This document shows positions 30,204-38,909 of a stretch of DNA of 64,000 nt, piece after piece. The notes beneath the pieces are model-generated. The model made no database searches. It was not told the origin of the DNA and saw only the letters and a program-made list of their open reading frames with translations. Source of the stretch: Rhodobacterales bacterium LSUCC0031 (lineage in GTDB: Bacteria; Pseudomonadota; Alphaproteobacteria; Rhodobacterales; Rhodobacteraceae); contig WVSP01000001.1 in the NCBI GenBank assembly GCA_015689735.1, forward strand, positions 980,001 to 1,044,000, given 5' to 3'. Numbering within the stretch: position 1 is the first letter of the stretch; every line of letters begins with the position of its first letter. Position numbers and translations under genes: made by a program.

Positions 30204-30977
30204 ATGAAGGCAGTGATTCTTGCCGGCGGTCTCGGTACACGTATATCCGAGGAGACGCATCTCAAGCCGAAGCCCATGATCGAGATCGGCGGTCGCCCGA
30301 TTCTCTGGCACATAATGAAAATATATTCCGCCCACGGCGTGAATGACTTCATTATTTGTTGCGGTTACAAAGGATATGTAATCAAGGAGTACTTCGCCAA
30401 CTACTTCCTGCACATGTCTGATGTCACCTTCGACATGACCAGTAATCAGATGGAGGTGCATCAGAAGAAAGCGGAGCCTTGGCGGGTAACCTTGGTCGAC
30501 ACTGGTGATGAGACGCTTACCGGTGGGCGACTCAAGCGGGTGGCAGACTACCTGCGTGCGGACGATGCATTCTGCTTTACCTACGGCGATGGGGTCGCCG
30601 ACGTGGACATCGGTAAGCAGCTGGCTTTCCATCGCTCGCACGGGAAGCTTGCCACGGTGACCGCAGTCCAGCCGCCTGGTCGTTACGGAGCGCTGATTCG
30701 CGATGGCGATCTGGTCAGTGGTTTTCGTGAGAAGCCGCCTGGGGACGGCGCCTGGATCAACGGAGGGTTCTTCGTCCTGAGTCCAGAGGTTCTTGATTAC
30801 ATCGATGGCGACAAGGTGTCCTGGGAAGCCGGGCCACTTGCGCTTATCGCAAGCCAGGGTGAACTCGCGGCGTTCGAGCACCGGGGGTTCTGGCAGCCGA
30901 TGGACACCTTGCGTGATAAGACCTATCTGGAGCAGCTCTGGGAGTCGGGCAGTGCGCCTTGGACGATATGGCAATGA
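30204..30977 (+). CDS. rfbF: Glucose-1-phosphate cytidylyltransferase
   Basis: 257 residues from ATG 30204, preceded by AGGAG. It has MKAVILAGGLGTRISEETHLKPKPMIEIGG at the nucleotide-binding N-terminus (given here only as the class motif GGLGTR and KPKPM), then FIICCGYKG, FTYGDGVADVDI with the metal-binding Asp, and INGGFFVLSPEVLDYI. This is the RfbF/DdhA family, which makes CDP-glucose from CTP and glucose-1-phosphate. The stop overlaps the start of the CDP-glucose dehydratase by 4 bp (ATGA), a fixed pair in CDP-deoxysugar clusters. Confidence 0.93.
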   Translation: MKAVILAGGLGTRISEETHLKPKPMIEIGGRPILWHIMKIYSAHGVNDFIICCGYKGYVIKEYFANYFLHMSDVTFDMTSNQMEVHQKKAEPWRVTLVDTGDETLTGGRLKRVADYLRADDAFCFTYGDGVADVDIGKQLAFHRSHGKLATVTAVQPPGRYGALIRDGDLVSGFREKPPGDGAWINGGFFVLSPEVLDYIDGDKVSWEAGPLALIASQGELAAFEHRGFWQPMDTLRDKTYLEQLWESGSAPWTIWQ

Positions 30978-32056
30978 ATCCATTTGCTGATTTCTACCGC
31001 GGCAAGAGGGTATTGGTCACTGGCCACACCGGCTTTAAAGGCAGTTGGCTTGTTCTCTGGCTCAAGGAGCTTGGCGCCACCGTCACGGGCGTGAGCCTTT
31101 CGCCCGAGGGCGCACCGAATCATTGGGATTTGCTCGGGCTCGATATCGACGACCGCTGCATCGATATCCGCGATGCCGGTACGCTCGCCGATGTGGTAAG
31201 GGAAACGCAACCGGAGATCGTCTTTCACCTAGCCGCGCAGTCACTGGTGCGTCGCTCCTACCGGACCCCGCTCGATACCTGGTCCACGAACGTCATGGGG
31301 ACCGCGAATCTGCTTGAAGCGTGCCGGCTTGCCGGTGGCGTTCGGGCCGTCATTGCTGTCACCACGGACAAATGTTACGAAAATCAGGAGTGGCCCTGGG
31401 GTTACCGTGAGATTGATCGCCTGGGCGGTCACGATCCCTATAGTGCATCGAAAGCCGGCGCCGAATTGGTCGCCGCCAGTTACCGTAGCGCCTTTTTCAA
31501 CGCGCCCGAAGCGATCCGGCTGGCCACAGCACGTGCCGGCAACGTCATTGGCGGTGGAGACTGGTCGGAAGACCGGTTGATCCCTGATCTGGTGCGCGCG
31601 GTGGAAGAGGTGCGTCCGTTAGAGATTCGTTCGCCCAACGCCACTCGCCCGTGGCAGCACGTGTTGGAATCCCTGAGCGGGTATCTTCTCTTGGGGCAGA
31701 GGTTGCTGCAGGAAAACTCGGGTTTTTCGACGGCCTGGAATTTCGGCCCTGACGGCGAAGGAAACCGCACGGTCGCAGATGTGCTCGCCATTCTTGCTAG
31801 GCATTGGCCGGCACTGCGCTGGCAACTTGCCGAGACGCCTCAGTTGCATGAAGCATCTCTCCTGCAGCTGGACTGCGCCAAAGCCAGAAGTCACCTGAAA
31901 TGGCGGCCAGTCTGGGGTATCGAGGAGGCGCTTGCCCGCACCGCGGAGTGGTACCGTGCGTGGAGCGAGAATGGCGAGGTGAGCAGCCGGAAGCAATTGC
32001 TGGCGTACCTTGAGACAGCCCGGAAGGGTGGTCATGGCTGGGCGGTAGGCGGATGA
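30974..32056 (+). CDS. rfbG: CDP-glucose 4,6-dehydratase
   Basis: 360 residues from ATG 30974. It has RVLVTGHTGFKGSWLVLWL, HLAAQSLVRRSYRTP, VTTDKCYENQEW, the family-specific GGHDPYSASKAGAELV (Tyr/Lys), and ARAGNVIGGGDWSEDRLIPD; these are signature segments of RfbG/DdhB. It converts CDP-glucose to CDP-4-keto-6-deoxyglucose, the branch point for CDP-linked 3,6-dideoxy or branched sugars. No DdhC-type 3-dehydratase follows. Instead an epimerase-like protein and a C-methyltransferase do, which points to a methyl-branched sugar. Confidence 0.93.
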   Translation: MNPFADFYRGKRVLVTGHTGFKGSWLVLWLKELGATVTGVSLSPEGAPNHWDLLGLDIDDRCIDIRDAGTLADVVRETQPEIVFHLAAQSLVRRSYRTPLDTWSTNVMGTANLLEACRLAGGVRAVIAVTTDKCYENQEWPWGYREIDRLGGHDPYSASKAGAELVAASYRSAFFNAPEAIRLATARAGNVIGGGDWSEDRLIPDLVRAVEEVRPLEIRSPNATRPWQHVLESLSGYLLLGQRLLQENSGFSTAWNFGPDGEGNRTVADVLAILARHWPALRWQLAETPQLHEASLLQLDCAKARSHLKWRPVWGIEEALARTAEWYRAWSENGEVSSRKQLLAYLETARKGGHGWAVGG

Positions 32057-32604
32057 AGATCAACCTCACAGATATTGAGGGAGTGGCGATTGTGGAGACC
32101 ACCCCCTATGCGGACGATCGCGGTTCGTTCGCACGCTTCTACTGCGAGCTTGAGCTTGGTGGGGTCATCGGCGGTCGCCGCATCGTGCAGGTCAATCATT
32201 CCCGTACGGCGGCTGTAGGAGCCATTCGCGGCATGCATTTCCAACATCCGCCGTACGCAGAGATGAAGCTCGTGCGCTGCCTGAAAGGCCGGGTATGGGA
32301 CGTGGCGGTCGATCTGCGCGCGGGGTCGCCTACCTTCCTGCAATGGTACGGCGCGGAACTCACGCCGGAAAATGCCCGCATGCTCGTTATTCCTGAAGGG
32401 TGCGCACACGGTTTCCAGGCTGTTGCGCCGGACACCGAGCTGCTCTATTTGCACACAGCATTCTATACGCCCGAGGCCGAGGGAGGAGTCCGCTACGATG
32501 ACTCTCTGCTCGGTATAGAATGGCCGTTGGCGGTCACTGAGGTCTCGCAAAGAGACGCCGGCCATCCTGAAATCGGTTCCGGATTTAGCGGTATCCACCT
32601 ATGA
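32053..32604 (+). CDS. RmlC-like sugar 3,5- or 5-epimerase of the CDP branch
   Basis: A 183-residue cupin protein with DRGSFARFYCELEL, NHSRTAAVGAIRGMHFQHPP (catalytic His), KLVRCLKGRVWDVAVDLR and VIPEGCAHGFQAV. It belongs to the dTDP-4-dehydrorhamnose 3,5-epimerase family but sits between CDP-glucose dehydratase and a C-methyltransferase, with 4-bp overlaps at both ends. Its likely substrate is therefore a CDP-4-keto-6-deoxyhexose, before or after C-methylation. A separate true RmlC is encoded at 55244. Confidence 0.85.
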   Translation: MKINLTDIEGVAIVETTPYADDRGSFARFYCELELGGVIGGRRIVQVNHSRTAAVGAIRGMHFQHPPYAEMKLVRCLKGRVWDVAVDLRAGSPTFLQWYGAELTPENARMLVIPEGCAHGFQAVAPDTELLYLHTAFYTPEAEGGVRYDDSLLGIEWPLAVTEVSQRDAGHPEIGSGFSGIHL

Positions 32605-37967: not shown

Positions 37968-38129
37968 GTTTCTGGTATTAGCCATTTAAGGCATTTGTAC
38001 AAGAAATATAGGTCTTGCACGCACTGGAAGAGTGTTATTTTGGTTTTTGTGTGTAATTCGTGAGTTTTGTATATATGGGGCAGTCTAGGGGGTCCTTGTC
38101 GGATTTCACTATTTGGAGGAGGCTATTCA

Positions 38130-38909
38130 ATGAATCAGATCGCTCAGTTTCAAAAAGAGGTTGAGGCTAACATTGCGGCGCTAGGAAAGGACACGGCTCT
38201 CGCGGATATTGGTCGCGACTTTATGCTGCGCTCTGCAAATAACAAATATACCTACAACTTCACTTGGCTTGGGCGTCCTATTATCCAGTTTCCGCAGGAT
38301 GTCGTGGCTATGCAGGAGTTGATATGGTCTGTAAAACCAGACCTTATCATTGAGACAGGGATAGCTCATGGAGGGTCGCTGGTGTTCAGTGCGTCCATGC
38401 TGGCCTTGATTGACTTGGCGGAGGCTACGGATGTGGGGGAGATGCTTAATCCTGCTTTACTCCGACGTAAGGTGCTTGGGGTCGATATTGATATTCGGCC
38501 GCATAATCGCGCTGCAATAGAACAACATCCGTTTGCCTCACGAATTGAAATGATACAAGGGTCAAGTATTGCTCCGGATGTCGTAAGTCGCGTCAAAAAT
38601 ATTGCGGCGAGTTACTCCAATGTATTGGTTTGTCTGGACTCCAATCACACTCACGAGCATGTATTGGCAGAGCTTGAAGCCTATGCCCCTCTGACATCGG
38701 TAGGAAGCTATTGCGTTGTCTTCGATACCGCAATTGAGGATATGCCAGAGGATATGTTCTTGGGCCGTCCTTGGGGGCGTGGTAATAACCCCAAAACGGC
38801 CGTTTGGGAATATGTTAAGGACCATAAAGAATTTGAGATTGATCAGAGTGTCCAACACAAGATACAAATTACTGTTGCCCCGGATGGATTTCTTCGGCGG
38901 GTGAAGTAG
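38130..38909 (+). CDS. CmcI-like (cephalosporin hydroxylase family) SAM-dependent methyltransferase
   Basis: 259 residues from ATG 38130, which has a strong GGAGGAGG ribosome site; the frame open upstream is ignored. Segments NFTWLGRPIIQFPQDVVAMQ, KPDLIIETGIAHGGSLVF and GVDIDIRPHNRAAIEQHP mark the CmcI family. Members in polysaccharide clusters are thought to be SAM- and metal-dependent O-methyltransferases of sugars. The LVCLDSNHTHEHVLAELE segment fits the metal site. The gene is AT-rich and ends in TAGTG, which also starts the next gene. Confidence 0.78.
   Translation: MNQIAQFQKEVEANIAALGKDTALADIGRDFMLRSANNKYTYNFTWLGRPIIQFPQDVVAMQELIWSVKPDLIIETGIAHGGSLVFSASMLALIDLAEATDVGEMLNPALLRRKVLGVDIDIRPHNRAAIEQHPFASRIEMIQGSSIAPDVVSRVKNIAASYSNVLVCLDSNHTHEHVLAELEAYAPLTSVGSYCVVFDTAIEDMPEDMFLGRPWGRGNNPKTAVWEYVKDHKEFEIDQSVQHKIQITVAPDGFLRRVK

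What the first reader, a model, noticed from the sequence alone, without database searches (positions are those of the whole stretch)
30204..38909. Possible undescribed CDP-linked branched amino sugar
Overlapping genes run: CDP-glucose synthesis, 4,6-dehydration, epimerase-like cupin, C3-methyltransferase, aminotransferase with Lys183, a second methyltransferase and a PglD/NeuD-type acyltransferase. Then come a propeller protein, a WbqC-like protein and a CmcI-like methyltransferase. Read in order, this predicts a C-methylated, aminated, N-acylated and perhaps O-methylated 6-deoxyhexose carried on CDP. I know no characterised pathway with exactly this set.
Basis: inference. Interest (0 to 1): 0.7.

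Follow-up and report, generated by a model that had tools for sequence, protein, structure and literature searches.

The report
Kansosamine-type branched amino sugar pathway
Ten adjacent genes look like a pathway for a rare branched amino sugar of the kind known from a mycobacterial cell-surface antigen; its five-enzyme core turns up in many unrelated bacteria with different decorating enzymes attached.

Summary
In detail: ten same-strand genes (30204-38909) encode RfbF, RfbG, an RmlC-type cupin, a 3-C-methyltransferase, a PLP aminotransferase (Lys183), a small methyltransferase, a NeuD/PglD acyltransferase, a propeller protein, WbqC and a CmcI/rhamnosyl-O-methyltransferase. Comparison supports the chemistry. 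Of 80 genome loci found by the aminotransferase, 64 also hold rfbF, rfbG, rfbC and the C-methyltransferase, 50 in the window's order, and 67 hold the CmcI type. The aminotransferase stands in place of the ketoreductase of sister clusters. The sugar class is not undescribed: the same five-gene block (57-75% identical) sits in the lipooligosaccharide locus of Mycobacterium kansasii-complex genomes, whose antigen carries N-acylkansosamine (structure recalled). Best reading: the core makes CDP-4-amino-4,6-dideoxy-3-C-methyl-L-mannose. 'Read in order' needs correction: small methyltransferase, NeuD, propeller and WbqC form a tail cassette found elsewhere near other sugar aminotransferases. Nothing was assayed. 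Upstream GDP-colitose-type genes are a separate sugar. Novelty: a new variant of a known sugar type, for which I found no characterised pathway.

The parts
30204..30977 (+). rfbF: glucose-1-phosphate cytidylyltransferase (CDP-glucose synthesis)
   Evidence: TIGR02623 474 bits, above cutoff
30968..32056 (+). rfbG: CDP-glucose 4,6-dehydratase
   Evidence: TIGR02622 484 bits, above cutoff
32053..32604 (+). RmlC-type cupin; probable 3,5- (or 5-) epimerase on the CDP-4-keto sugar
   Evidence: PF00908; nearest PDB 1dzr RmlC 1e-39, aligned His, Lys, two Tyr and Asp kept (that these are the active-site residues is recalled)
32601..33827 (+). sugar 3-C-methyltransferase (KijD1/MtmC/TcaB9 type)
   Evidence: PF08421, PF08484; PDB 5t64, 4rv9, 3ndi; in a starred clade of 42 rows, all aminotransferase-linked
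33839..34954 (+). PLP aminotransferase, probable 4-aminotransferase on the CDP-3-C-methyl-4-keto sugar; Lys183
   Evidence: PF01041; nearest PDB 7b0m 'sugar aminotransferase' and perosamine synthetase 3bn1; Lys183 invariant in four sequences
34947..35591 (+). small SAM methyltransferase, part of the tail cassette
   Evidence: generic methyltransferase Pfam hits; with NeuD, propeller and WbqC homologues in 6 of 10 plasmid loci opened
35594..36256 (+). NeuD/PglD-type left-handed beta-helix acyltransferase, part of the tail cassette
   Evidence: TIGR03570 just above cutoff; 157-210 bits to four cassette homologues versus at most 62 bits to the NeuD genes of other core loci
36267..37226 (+). propeller-like protein with distant GH130/GH32/GH43-type similarity; part of the tail cassette
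   Evidence: no Pfam hit; weak hits; homologues in 8 of 10 plasmid loci opened
37239..37967 (+). WbqC family protein, function unknown; in this and other tails
   Evidence: PF08889 198 bits; confident model (pLDDT 92.3) without a PDB match at E<=0.001
38130..38909 (+). RMNT_CmcI-type methyltransferase; probable 2-O-methylation of the rhamno-configured sugar
   Evidence: PF04989 326 bits; homologue in 67 of 80 core loci

Best explanation
The locus makes an N-acylated, probably 2-O-methylated 4-amino-4,6-dideoxy-3-C-methyl-hexose on CDP, i.e. a kansosamine-type sugar, for a surface glycan. Steps (all inferred from sequence): RfbF makes CDP-glucose; RfbG makes CDP-4-keto-6-deoxyglucose; the RmlC-type cupin epimerises it (C3/C5, giving the L-rhamno configuration); the C-methyltransferase adds CH3 at C3 next to the 4-ketone; the aminotransferase puts NH2 at C4, giving CDP-4-amino-4,6-dideoxy-3-C-methyl-L-mannose. 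A tail cassette (small methyltransferase, NeuD-type acyltransferase, propeller, WbqC) builds or attaches the acyl group on the new amine, and the CmcI-type enzyme O-methylates the ring, most likely at O-2. The five-gene core is constant between organisms and the tail is swapped.
For: Family assignments. Of 80 loci, C-methyltransferase in 74, all four partner genes in 64, window order in 50, CmcI type in 67. Near C-methyltransferases without the aminotransferase an SDR reductase is found: 9 of 17 (4 of 12 without the query sources) versus 1 of 80 aminotransferase-linked ones. The window C-methyltransferase falls in a starred clade of 42, 41 linked to close and 1 to distant aminotransferases. 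The aminotransferase is also joined to rfbF-rfbG-rfbC where the C-methyltransferase is missing (Pacificitalea). Between aminotransferase and CmcI stand interchangeable amide formers: NeuD 15, ATP-grasp 13, formyltransferase 11, AMP-ligase 7, GNAT 7 of 80; 53 of 80 have at least one. The same core, 57-75% identical, is in the LOS locus of M. kansasii-complex genomes, next to the gene bearing the published MKAN27435 primers; N-acyl kansosamine is a sugar of that LOS.
Against: No enzyme was assayed. The kansosamine structure (2-O-methyl, 3-C-methyl, 4-amino, L-manno) is recalled; the structure paper is not held (one search was a guessed DOI). Six of 80 loci show no C-methyltransferase over 300 bits: three begin within 0.6 kb of the aminotransferase, one has a 246-bit hit, but two Nitrospira loci (L014, L021) show none in over 6.8 kb upstream or 9.9 kb downstream. 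Ensifer and related loci have the block rearranged or split. The region L087 has the window's order rfbF-rfbG-rfbC-C-methyltransferase with no aminotransferase in the stretch. The M. attenuatum and M. innocens loci and the other M. kansasii-type loci compared show no CmcI-type gene, so the O-2 assignment rests on the others. In class-wide sampling 32 of 39 C-methyltransferase genomes have no such aminotransferase (at most six candidates a genome were scored). 27 of 80 loci show none of the five amide-former types in the stretch examined. Cupin stereochemistry cannot be read from sequence.
Confidence: 0.65

Rival explanations
1. Same core, but the tail cassette (34947-37967) does not act on this sugar: it is a second module that decorates another glycan residue, and the N-acyl group comes from elsewhere.
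For: All four cassette genes recur without the CDP core in 6 of 10 plasmid loci opened (L129, L130, L131, L133, L135, L136), with another DegT aminotransferase in the stretch in five of them (annotated as dTDP-4-amino-4,6-dideoxygalactose transaminase in L133, L135, L136); L130 shows none in the stretch. The window NeuD is not close to the NeuD genes of other core loci.
Against: In the window the cassette lies between aminotransferase and CmcI gene with overlaps or gaps of 12 nt or less up to WbqC, the slot where other loci hold their amide-forming genes, and most of its other hosts carry a sugar aminotransferase nearby.
Confidence: 0.2
2. The sugar is D-configured or otherwise not L-manno: the cupin is a 3-epimerase or 5-epimerase only.
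For: TIGR01221 score is just below cutoff; mono-epimerases (NovW, a D-allose-pathway 3-epimerase) are among the PDB relatives.
Against: The nearest solved relative is the 3,5-epimerase RmlC (1e-39) and the aligned His, Lys, Tyr and Asp residues are kept; the M. kansasii parallel points to L-manno (recalled).
Confidence: 0.2
3. Two separate sugars: a neutral CDP-3-C-methyl-6-deoxyhexose and an amino sugar made by the aminotransferase from another nucleotide sugar.
For: C-methyltransferases in genomes without the aminotransferase are common (32 of 39); a GDP-sugar module lies directly upstream.
Against: The aminotransferase of this clade is joined to the CDP core in 64 of 80 loci, these 64 from six named phyla; a reductase of the sister clusters' kind is near 1 of 80; apart from RfbG no SDR gene lies between rfbF and CmcI in the window.
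Confidence: 0.08
4. Amination at C3 before methylation, giving a 3-amino-3-C-methyl (vancosamine/kijanose-like) sugar.
For: The nearest PDB methyltransferases include 5t64 and TcaB9, whose substrates carry a 3-amino group (recalled).
Against: No FdtA-type ketoisomerase in the own genome (control rang in 1 of 14; genome about 96% complete). A 2,3-dehydratase search found nothing but rang in 0 of 14 controls, so it is not informative. The aminotransferase is nearest to perosamine synthetase and ArnB among named PDB chains (that these act at C4 is recalled). The C-methyltransferase motif YHEH matches 4rv9, D-mycarose methyltransferase, rather than the YDEH of 5t64 and TcaB9.
Confidence: 0.06

Closest known systems
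N-acylkansosamine/LOS locus of the Mycobacterium kansasii complex (MKAN27430-27485; PMC4403928, passages seen)
   Same: rfbF-rfbG-rfbC-C-methyltransferase-aminotransferase in the same order, 57-75% identical to the window; the LOS carries N-acyl kansosamine (detailed structure recalled).
   Different: Tail is ATP-grasp, NAD epimerase and TylF methyltransferase; no CmcI, NeuD, WbqC or propeller hit in L062, L068, L124-L126. The paper's Table 1 as seen lists a cytidylyltransferase, a dehydratase, a rhamnose epimerase and a methyltransferase; the passages seen assign none of them to the sugar.
Reductase-type CDP clusters (C-methyltransferase, rfbC and SDR together), e.g. L096, L101, L104, L106
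   Same: Same C-methyltransferase family (48-51% identical) and CDP-glucose genes in L096 and L104.
   Different: An SDR reductase instead of the aminotransferase and another gene order; predicted neutral branched sugar.
Sugar 3-C-methyltransferases of PDB 5t64, 3ndi (TcaB9) and 4rv9 (D-mycarose)
   Same: Full-length match, 1e-62 to 1e-70.
   Different: Those act in dTDP antibiotic-sugar pathways (recalled); here the partners are CDP enzymes.
Perosamine-type pathways with NeuD/PglD-type N-acyltransferases
   Same: Aminotransferase and acyltransferase families; 4-amination of a 4-keto-6-deoxyhexose then acylation (recalled).
   Different: No C-methylation; GDP- or dTDP-linked (recalled).
Other 3-C-methyl sugars: 3-C-methyl-D-mannose of Helicobacter pylori, virenose of Coxiella
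   Same: C3-methyl branch; 3-C-methyl sugars are called uncommon in PMC9912281 (passage). An in-silico virenose route uses a TylCIII-like enzyme (PMC3539893, passages).
   Different: Neutral sugars; the virenose proposal is dTDP or GDP linked.
WbqC-methyltransferase-acetyltransferase-propeller cassette (L129, L130, L131, L133, L135, L136)
   Same: Homologues of all four window genes 34947-37967 together.
   Different: Without the CDP core; near other aminotransferases; a GT2 gene stands between WbqC and the methyltransferase in L130, L133 and L135.

Membership tests
CDP-kansosamine-type pathway | CDP-glucose synthesis and 4,6-dehydration | tested here: met
   TIGR02623 and TIGR02622 above cutoff
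CDP-kansosamine-type pathway | Sugar 3-C-methyltransferase in the block | tested here: met
   PF08421+PF08484, PDB relatives; 69-70% identical to the mycobacterial one
CDP-kansosamine-type pathway | Aminotransferase like that of the mycobacterial LOS locus | tested here: met
   74-75% identical; C4 regiochemistry itself not tested
CDP-kansosamine-type pathway | O-methyltransferase for the 2-O-methyl group | tested here: inconclusive
   CmcI-type gene in the window and 67 of 80 loci but not in the M. kansasii-complex loci compared
CDP-kansosamine-type pathway | N-acyl group 2-methoxypropionyl (recalled) | not testable with these tools
   Tail enzymes differ from the mycobacterial ones; another acyl group is likely
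CDP-kansosamine-type pathway | L-manno product | not testable with these tools
   RmlC-like residues kept; needs NMR
NeuD/PglD/VioB acyltransferases (TIGR03570) | Curated score cutoff | tested here: met
   161.4 bits, cutoff 160.8
RmlC equivalog (TIGR01221) | Curated score cutoff | tested here: not met
   153.4 bits, cutoff 155.75: in the superfamily, not filed as dTDP-RmlC
Rhamnosyl O-methyltransferase equivalog (NF045824) | Curated score cutoff | tested here: not met
   93 bits, cutoff 400; Pfam PF04989 met
GDP-colitose ColD (28666-29856, upstream) | Closest to ColD, not to RfbH | tested here: met
   ColD/WbdK entries 9e-158 to 2e-159, CDP-sugar 3-dehydrase 1e-55

The most novel reading that the evidence does not exclude
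A constant five-enzyme core for CDP-4-amino-4,6-dideoxy-3-C-methyl-L-mannose is the general biosynthetic route to kansosamine-type sugars, found complete in six named phyla (64 of 80 loci), and is diversified by swapping amide-forming tail cassettes; the window carries a tail (methyltransferase, NeuD, propeller, WbqC) that would give an N-acylkansosamine relative not described so far, and implies that WbqC and the propeller take part in acyl-tail assembly.
Probability: 0.5. Interest if true: 0.72.

Novelty: new variant of a known kind. Interest (0 to 1): 0.6.

Why it matters
If true, it gives complete gene candidates for the core of an antigenic branched amino sugar first described in the 1980s (titles of 1984 and 1985 in a reference list), extends that sugar type from one mycobacterial species complex to Proteobacteria, cyanobacteria, Verrucomicrobia and others, and makes the pathway testable with five enzymes from an environmental genome. 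The shared tail cassette also gives a functional context to WbqC and the propeller protein.

Tried and rejected
Rejected: the upstream DegT gene as part of the CDP route (it is ColD-like); an FdtA-type ketoisomerase route. The 2,3-dehydratase search rang nowhere and shows nothing. Not followed: the idea that WbqC makes an aminoacyl amide as in an E. coli O-antigen (recalled; the review was not held; one search had no wbq gene). WbqC fold: confident model but no PDB match at E<=0.001 and no profile hit; weak nucleotidyltransferase and E1-like rows were not used. Literature: searches listed no paper that, in the listings and passages seen, assigns genes to kansosamine or describes this gene set; only open-licence PMC papers were searched. 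Of PMC4403928, PMC8093194, PMC9912281, PMC3539893 and PMC4732683 only passages were seen; PMC10470612 was searched for four terms without a hit (58).

Limits of the counts: the 80 loci are the best 80 of 291 found by similarity to an aminotransferase alignment, not a random sample, and many are metagenome bins. In one search hits under set bit scores were not counted (rfbF and rfbG 200, rfbC 100, C-methyltransferase 300, CmcI 150, WbqC 100, others 25). Labels give one best family per open frame, so a gene can be hidden by its frame. Tail types are clusters named after one member's Pfam hits, the NeuD and WbqC clusters after the window protein in them. Five of the 17 C-methyltransferases without a near aminotransferase supplied the reductase queries; two of the 17 (in L003 and L065) have one 7.0 and 8.8 kb away. 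Of the 39 genomes, 19 were opened, plus G026. Of the 19 plasmid records, three were opened. For the cassette, ten loci were opened from three searches with 32, 10 and 13 records.

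
Full report
What is there. Four of the nine junctions overlap, four are gaps of 2-12 nt, and a 162-nt gap precedes the CmcI gene. Two details differ from the finding: the RmlC-type cupin scores just under the RmlC equivalog cutoff, and the propeller has no Pfam hit, only weak similarity to a mannobiose phosphorylase model and to two beta-galactosidase chains and, in two homologues, to GH32 and GH130.

A conserved core. Tblastn of the aminotransferase on plasmids gave 19 records; three were opened. The Peteryoungia plasmid has rfbF-rfbG-rfbC-C-methyltransferase-aminotransferase-NeuD type-CmcI, with 79% identity in the aminotransferase. 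The Brachyspira plasmid has rfbF-radical SAM-rfbC-C-methyltransferase-aminotransferase-acetyltransferase. Pacificitalea has rfbF-rfbG-rfbC-aminotransferase without the C-methyltransferase. A scan of named genomes with an alignment of four aminotransferases gave 291 relatives, of which the best 80 loci were kept. In these the C-methyltransferase is present in 74, all of rfbF, rfbG, rfbC and C-methyltransferase in 64, the window's order on one strand in 50 (46 of the 68 loci with at least 4.5 kb upstream), and a CmcI-type gene in 67. Of the six without a C-methyltransferase over 300 bits, L012, L027 and L072 begin within 0.6 kb of the aminotransferase, L031 has a 246-bit hit, and L014 and L021 (Nitrospira) show none nearby. 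Record titles place the 80 loci in eight named phyla (60 Pseudomonadota; 2 without a phylum) and the 64 full cores in six (50 Pseudomonadota; 2 without a phylum).

Why the aminotransferase acts on the C-methylated CDP sugar. In 289 genomes of the class, the C-methyltransferase (E<=1e-90) is in 39 and the aminotransferase in 8, the window's genome included (at most six candidates a genome scored). Of the seven others, all at 44-48% identity, four have both genes within about 3 kb, two have them on different contigs and one has no C-methyltransferase at that threshold. Thirty-two of the 39 have no such aminotransferase. Nineteen of the 39 and one more genome were opened. Several without an aminotransferase read rfbF-rfbG-C-methyltransferase-rfbC, some followed by an SDR reductase; one, L087, has the window's order without an aminotransferase. 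The reductase lies within 4 kb of 1 of 80 aminotransferase-linked C-methyltransferases (the exception is L093) and of 9 of 17 others; five of those nine supplied the queries, leaving 4 of 12. On a quick tree of 96 C-methyltransferases the window's lies in a starred clade of 42, of which 41 are linked to close and one to distant aminotransferases; the close-aminotransferase label needs 7 changes against a shuffled mean of 20.0. I infer that reduction and transamination of the same 4-ketone are alternatives. The nearest solved aminotransferases are 7b0m and perosamine synthetase, then ArnB, with WbpE and QdtB further down (which of these act at C4 or C3 is recalled).

A known sugar of this kind. 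Two named hits are Mycobacterium attenuatum and M. innocens, members of the M. kansasii complex (passage). In M. innocens the core stands beside a glycosyltransferase gene that carries both published primers of MKAN27435 without mismatch and near a 1976-aa frame that reads as a polyketide synthase (by eye; no family search). Table 1 of PMC4403928 lists a cytidylyltransferase, a dehydratase/epimerase, a rhamnose epimerase and a methyltransferase at MKAN27440, 27445, 27450 and 27475, then a polyketide synthase at 27485. The order found, with tags rising by five, would make 27455 the C-methyltransferase and 27460 the aminotransferase (inference). An unnamed 6.4-Mb genome of the genus (G548) has both primers exactly and the same block; M. 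innocens has them too, so G548 may be M. kansasii or a sister. One primer was found with up to two mismatches in 5 of 396 genomes of the genus; in four of the five loci the core is complete in order, and in L126 the rfbG hit lies outside the block. The aminotransferase is at 80% identity or more in 5 of 198 genomes, the query's own included, with three more at 43-46%. The paper names N-acyl kansosamine as a unique sugar of the higher LOS subclasses and does not, in the passages seen, assign these genes to it. That kansosamine is 4-amino-4,6-dideoxy-3-C-methyl-2-O-methyl-L-mannose N-acylated with 2-methoxypropionate is recalled; the structure paper is not held. Against the window, the proteins of L062, L068 and L124 are 74-75% (rfbF), 65-66% (rfbG), 57% (rfbC), 69-70% (C-methyltransferase) and 74-75% (aminotransferase) identical.

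The tail. Between the aminotransferase and the CmcI gene the 80 loci hold changing sets: NeuD/PglD type 15, ATP-grasp 13, formyltransferase 11, PhyH 11, AMP-ligase 7, GNAT 7, WbqC 14 in the stretch scanned (24 anywhere in the locus), and at least one of the five amide-forming types in 53 of 80. The window's set is unusual: its small methyltransferase has one weak hit (L078) and its propeller none in the 80 loci. Outside the core these genes occur together. On plasmids the methyltransferase hit 10 records, NeuD 13 and the propeller 32. Of ten loci opened, all four genes are in six: Bernardetia L129, Peteryoungia L130 (a second locus), Acuticoccus L131 (more scattered), Azospirillum L133, Rhizobium sp. 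Q54 L135 and N731 L136; a DegT aminotransferase is in the same stretch in five of these six. Neorhizobium L132 has methyltransferase and WbqC, R. leguminosarum L134 two propellers and WbqC, Ruegeria L138 NeuD and propeller, Devosia L137 NeuD alone. The window's NeuD scores 157-210 bits to four cassette copies and at most 62 to those of other core loci.

Stereochemistry and methylation. The cupin aligns best to RmlC and keeps the residues that I recall as its active site, which favours L-rhamno configuration. The C-methyltransferase has YHEH like the D-mycarose enzyme 4rv9 rather than YDEH like TcaB9 and 5t64. The CmcI-type family includes a rhamnosyl O-methyltransferase, which I recall as acting at O-2; the NCBIfam equivalog cutoff is not met. 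The M. kansasii-complex loci compared have no CmcI-type hit, while a more distant genome of the genus, L127, has both TylF and CmcI types.

Context. The genes upstream are GMD, an SDR epimerase and a ColD-like gene, a separate GDP sugar; downstream are glycosyltransferases, an ABC transporter and RmlD-like, Polysacc_synt_2 and UDP-GlcNAc 2-epimerase genes. I read the locus as part of a surface-glycan island.

Judgement. Core chemistry is likely (about 0.75), L-manno configuration moderately so, the exact tail unknown. The set is a new variant of a sugar type that is known chemically but for which I found no characterised pathway in the papers searched.

Noticed in passing
window 26635-29856: GMD, an SDR epimerase (by position ColC or fucose synthase) and a ColD-like gene (2e-159 to WbdK/ColD) form a probable GDP-colitose module directly upstream of rfbF.
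   Followed up: partly
window 51659-54648: RmlD-like SDR, Polysacc_synt_2 and UDP-GlcNAc 2-epimerase genes suggest a UDP-L-FucNAc-type sugar in the same island (the sugar is recalled from similar gene sets).
   Followed up: no
window 45344-48232: Two fucosyltransferase-family genes, GT10-like and GT11.
   Followed up: no
window 21148-22098: Phage-integrase-family gene a few kilobases before the glycan genes.
   Followed up: no
window 55259-55774: A second, stronger dTDP_sugar_isom gene (221 bits), possibly RmlC of a dTDP-rhamnose set.
   Followed up: no
window 37239-37967: WbqC: AlphaFold model with pLDDT 92.3 but no PDB match at E<=0.001 and no solved relative by profile up to E=1.
   Followed up: partly
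L005 11017-12120: In the Brachyspira hyodysenteriae plasmid a radical SAM gene stands where rfbG stands in other core blocks.
   Followed up: no
L003 3110-7865: Peteryoungia carries a second, divergent CDP block (rfbF-rfbG-C-methyltransferase-rfbC-GT2) back to back with the kansosamine-type one, without a reductase hit nearby.
   Followed up: no
L127 3350-11284: A genome of the Mycobacterium group (G464) has the core with ATP-grasp, NAD epimerase, TylF and also a CmcI-type gene, linking two tail types.
   Followed up: no
L138 7001-8573: Ruegeria has NeuD and propeller homologues side by side, with a DegT aminotransferase and an annotated FdtA/QdtA cupin downstream.
   Followed up: no
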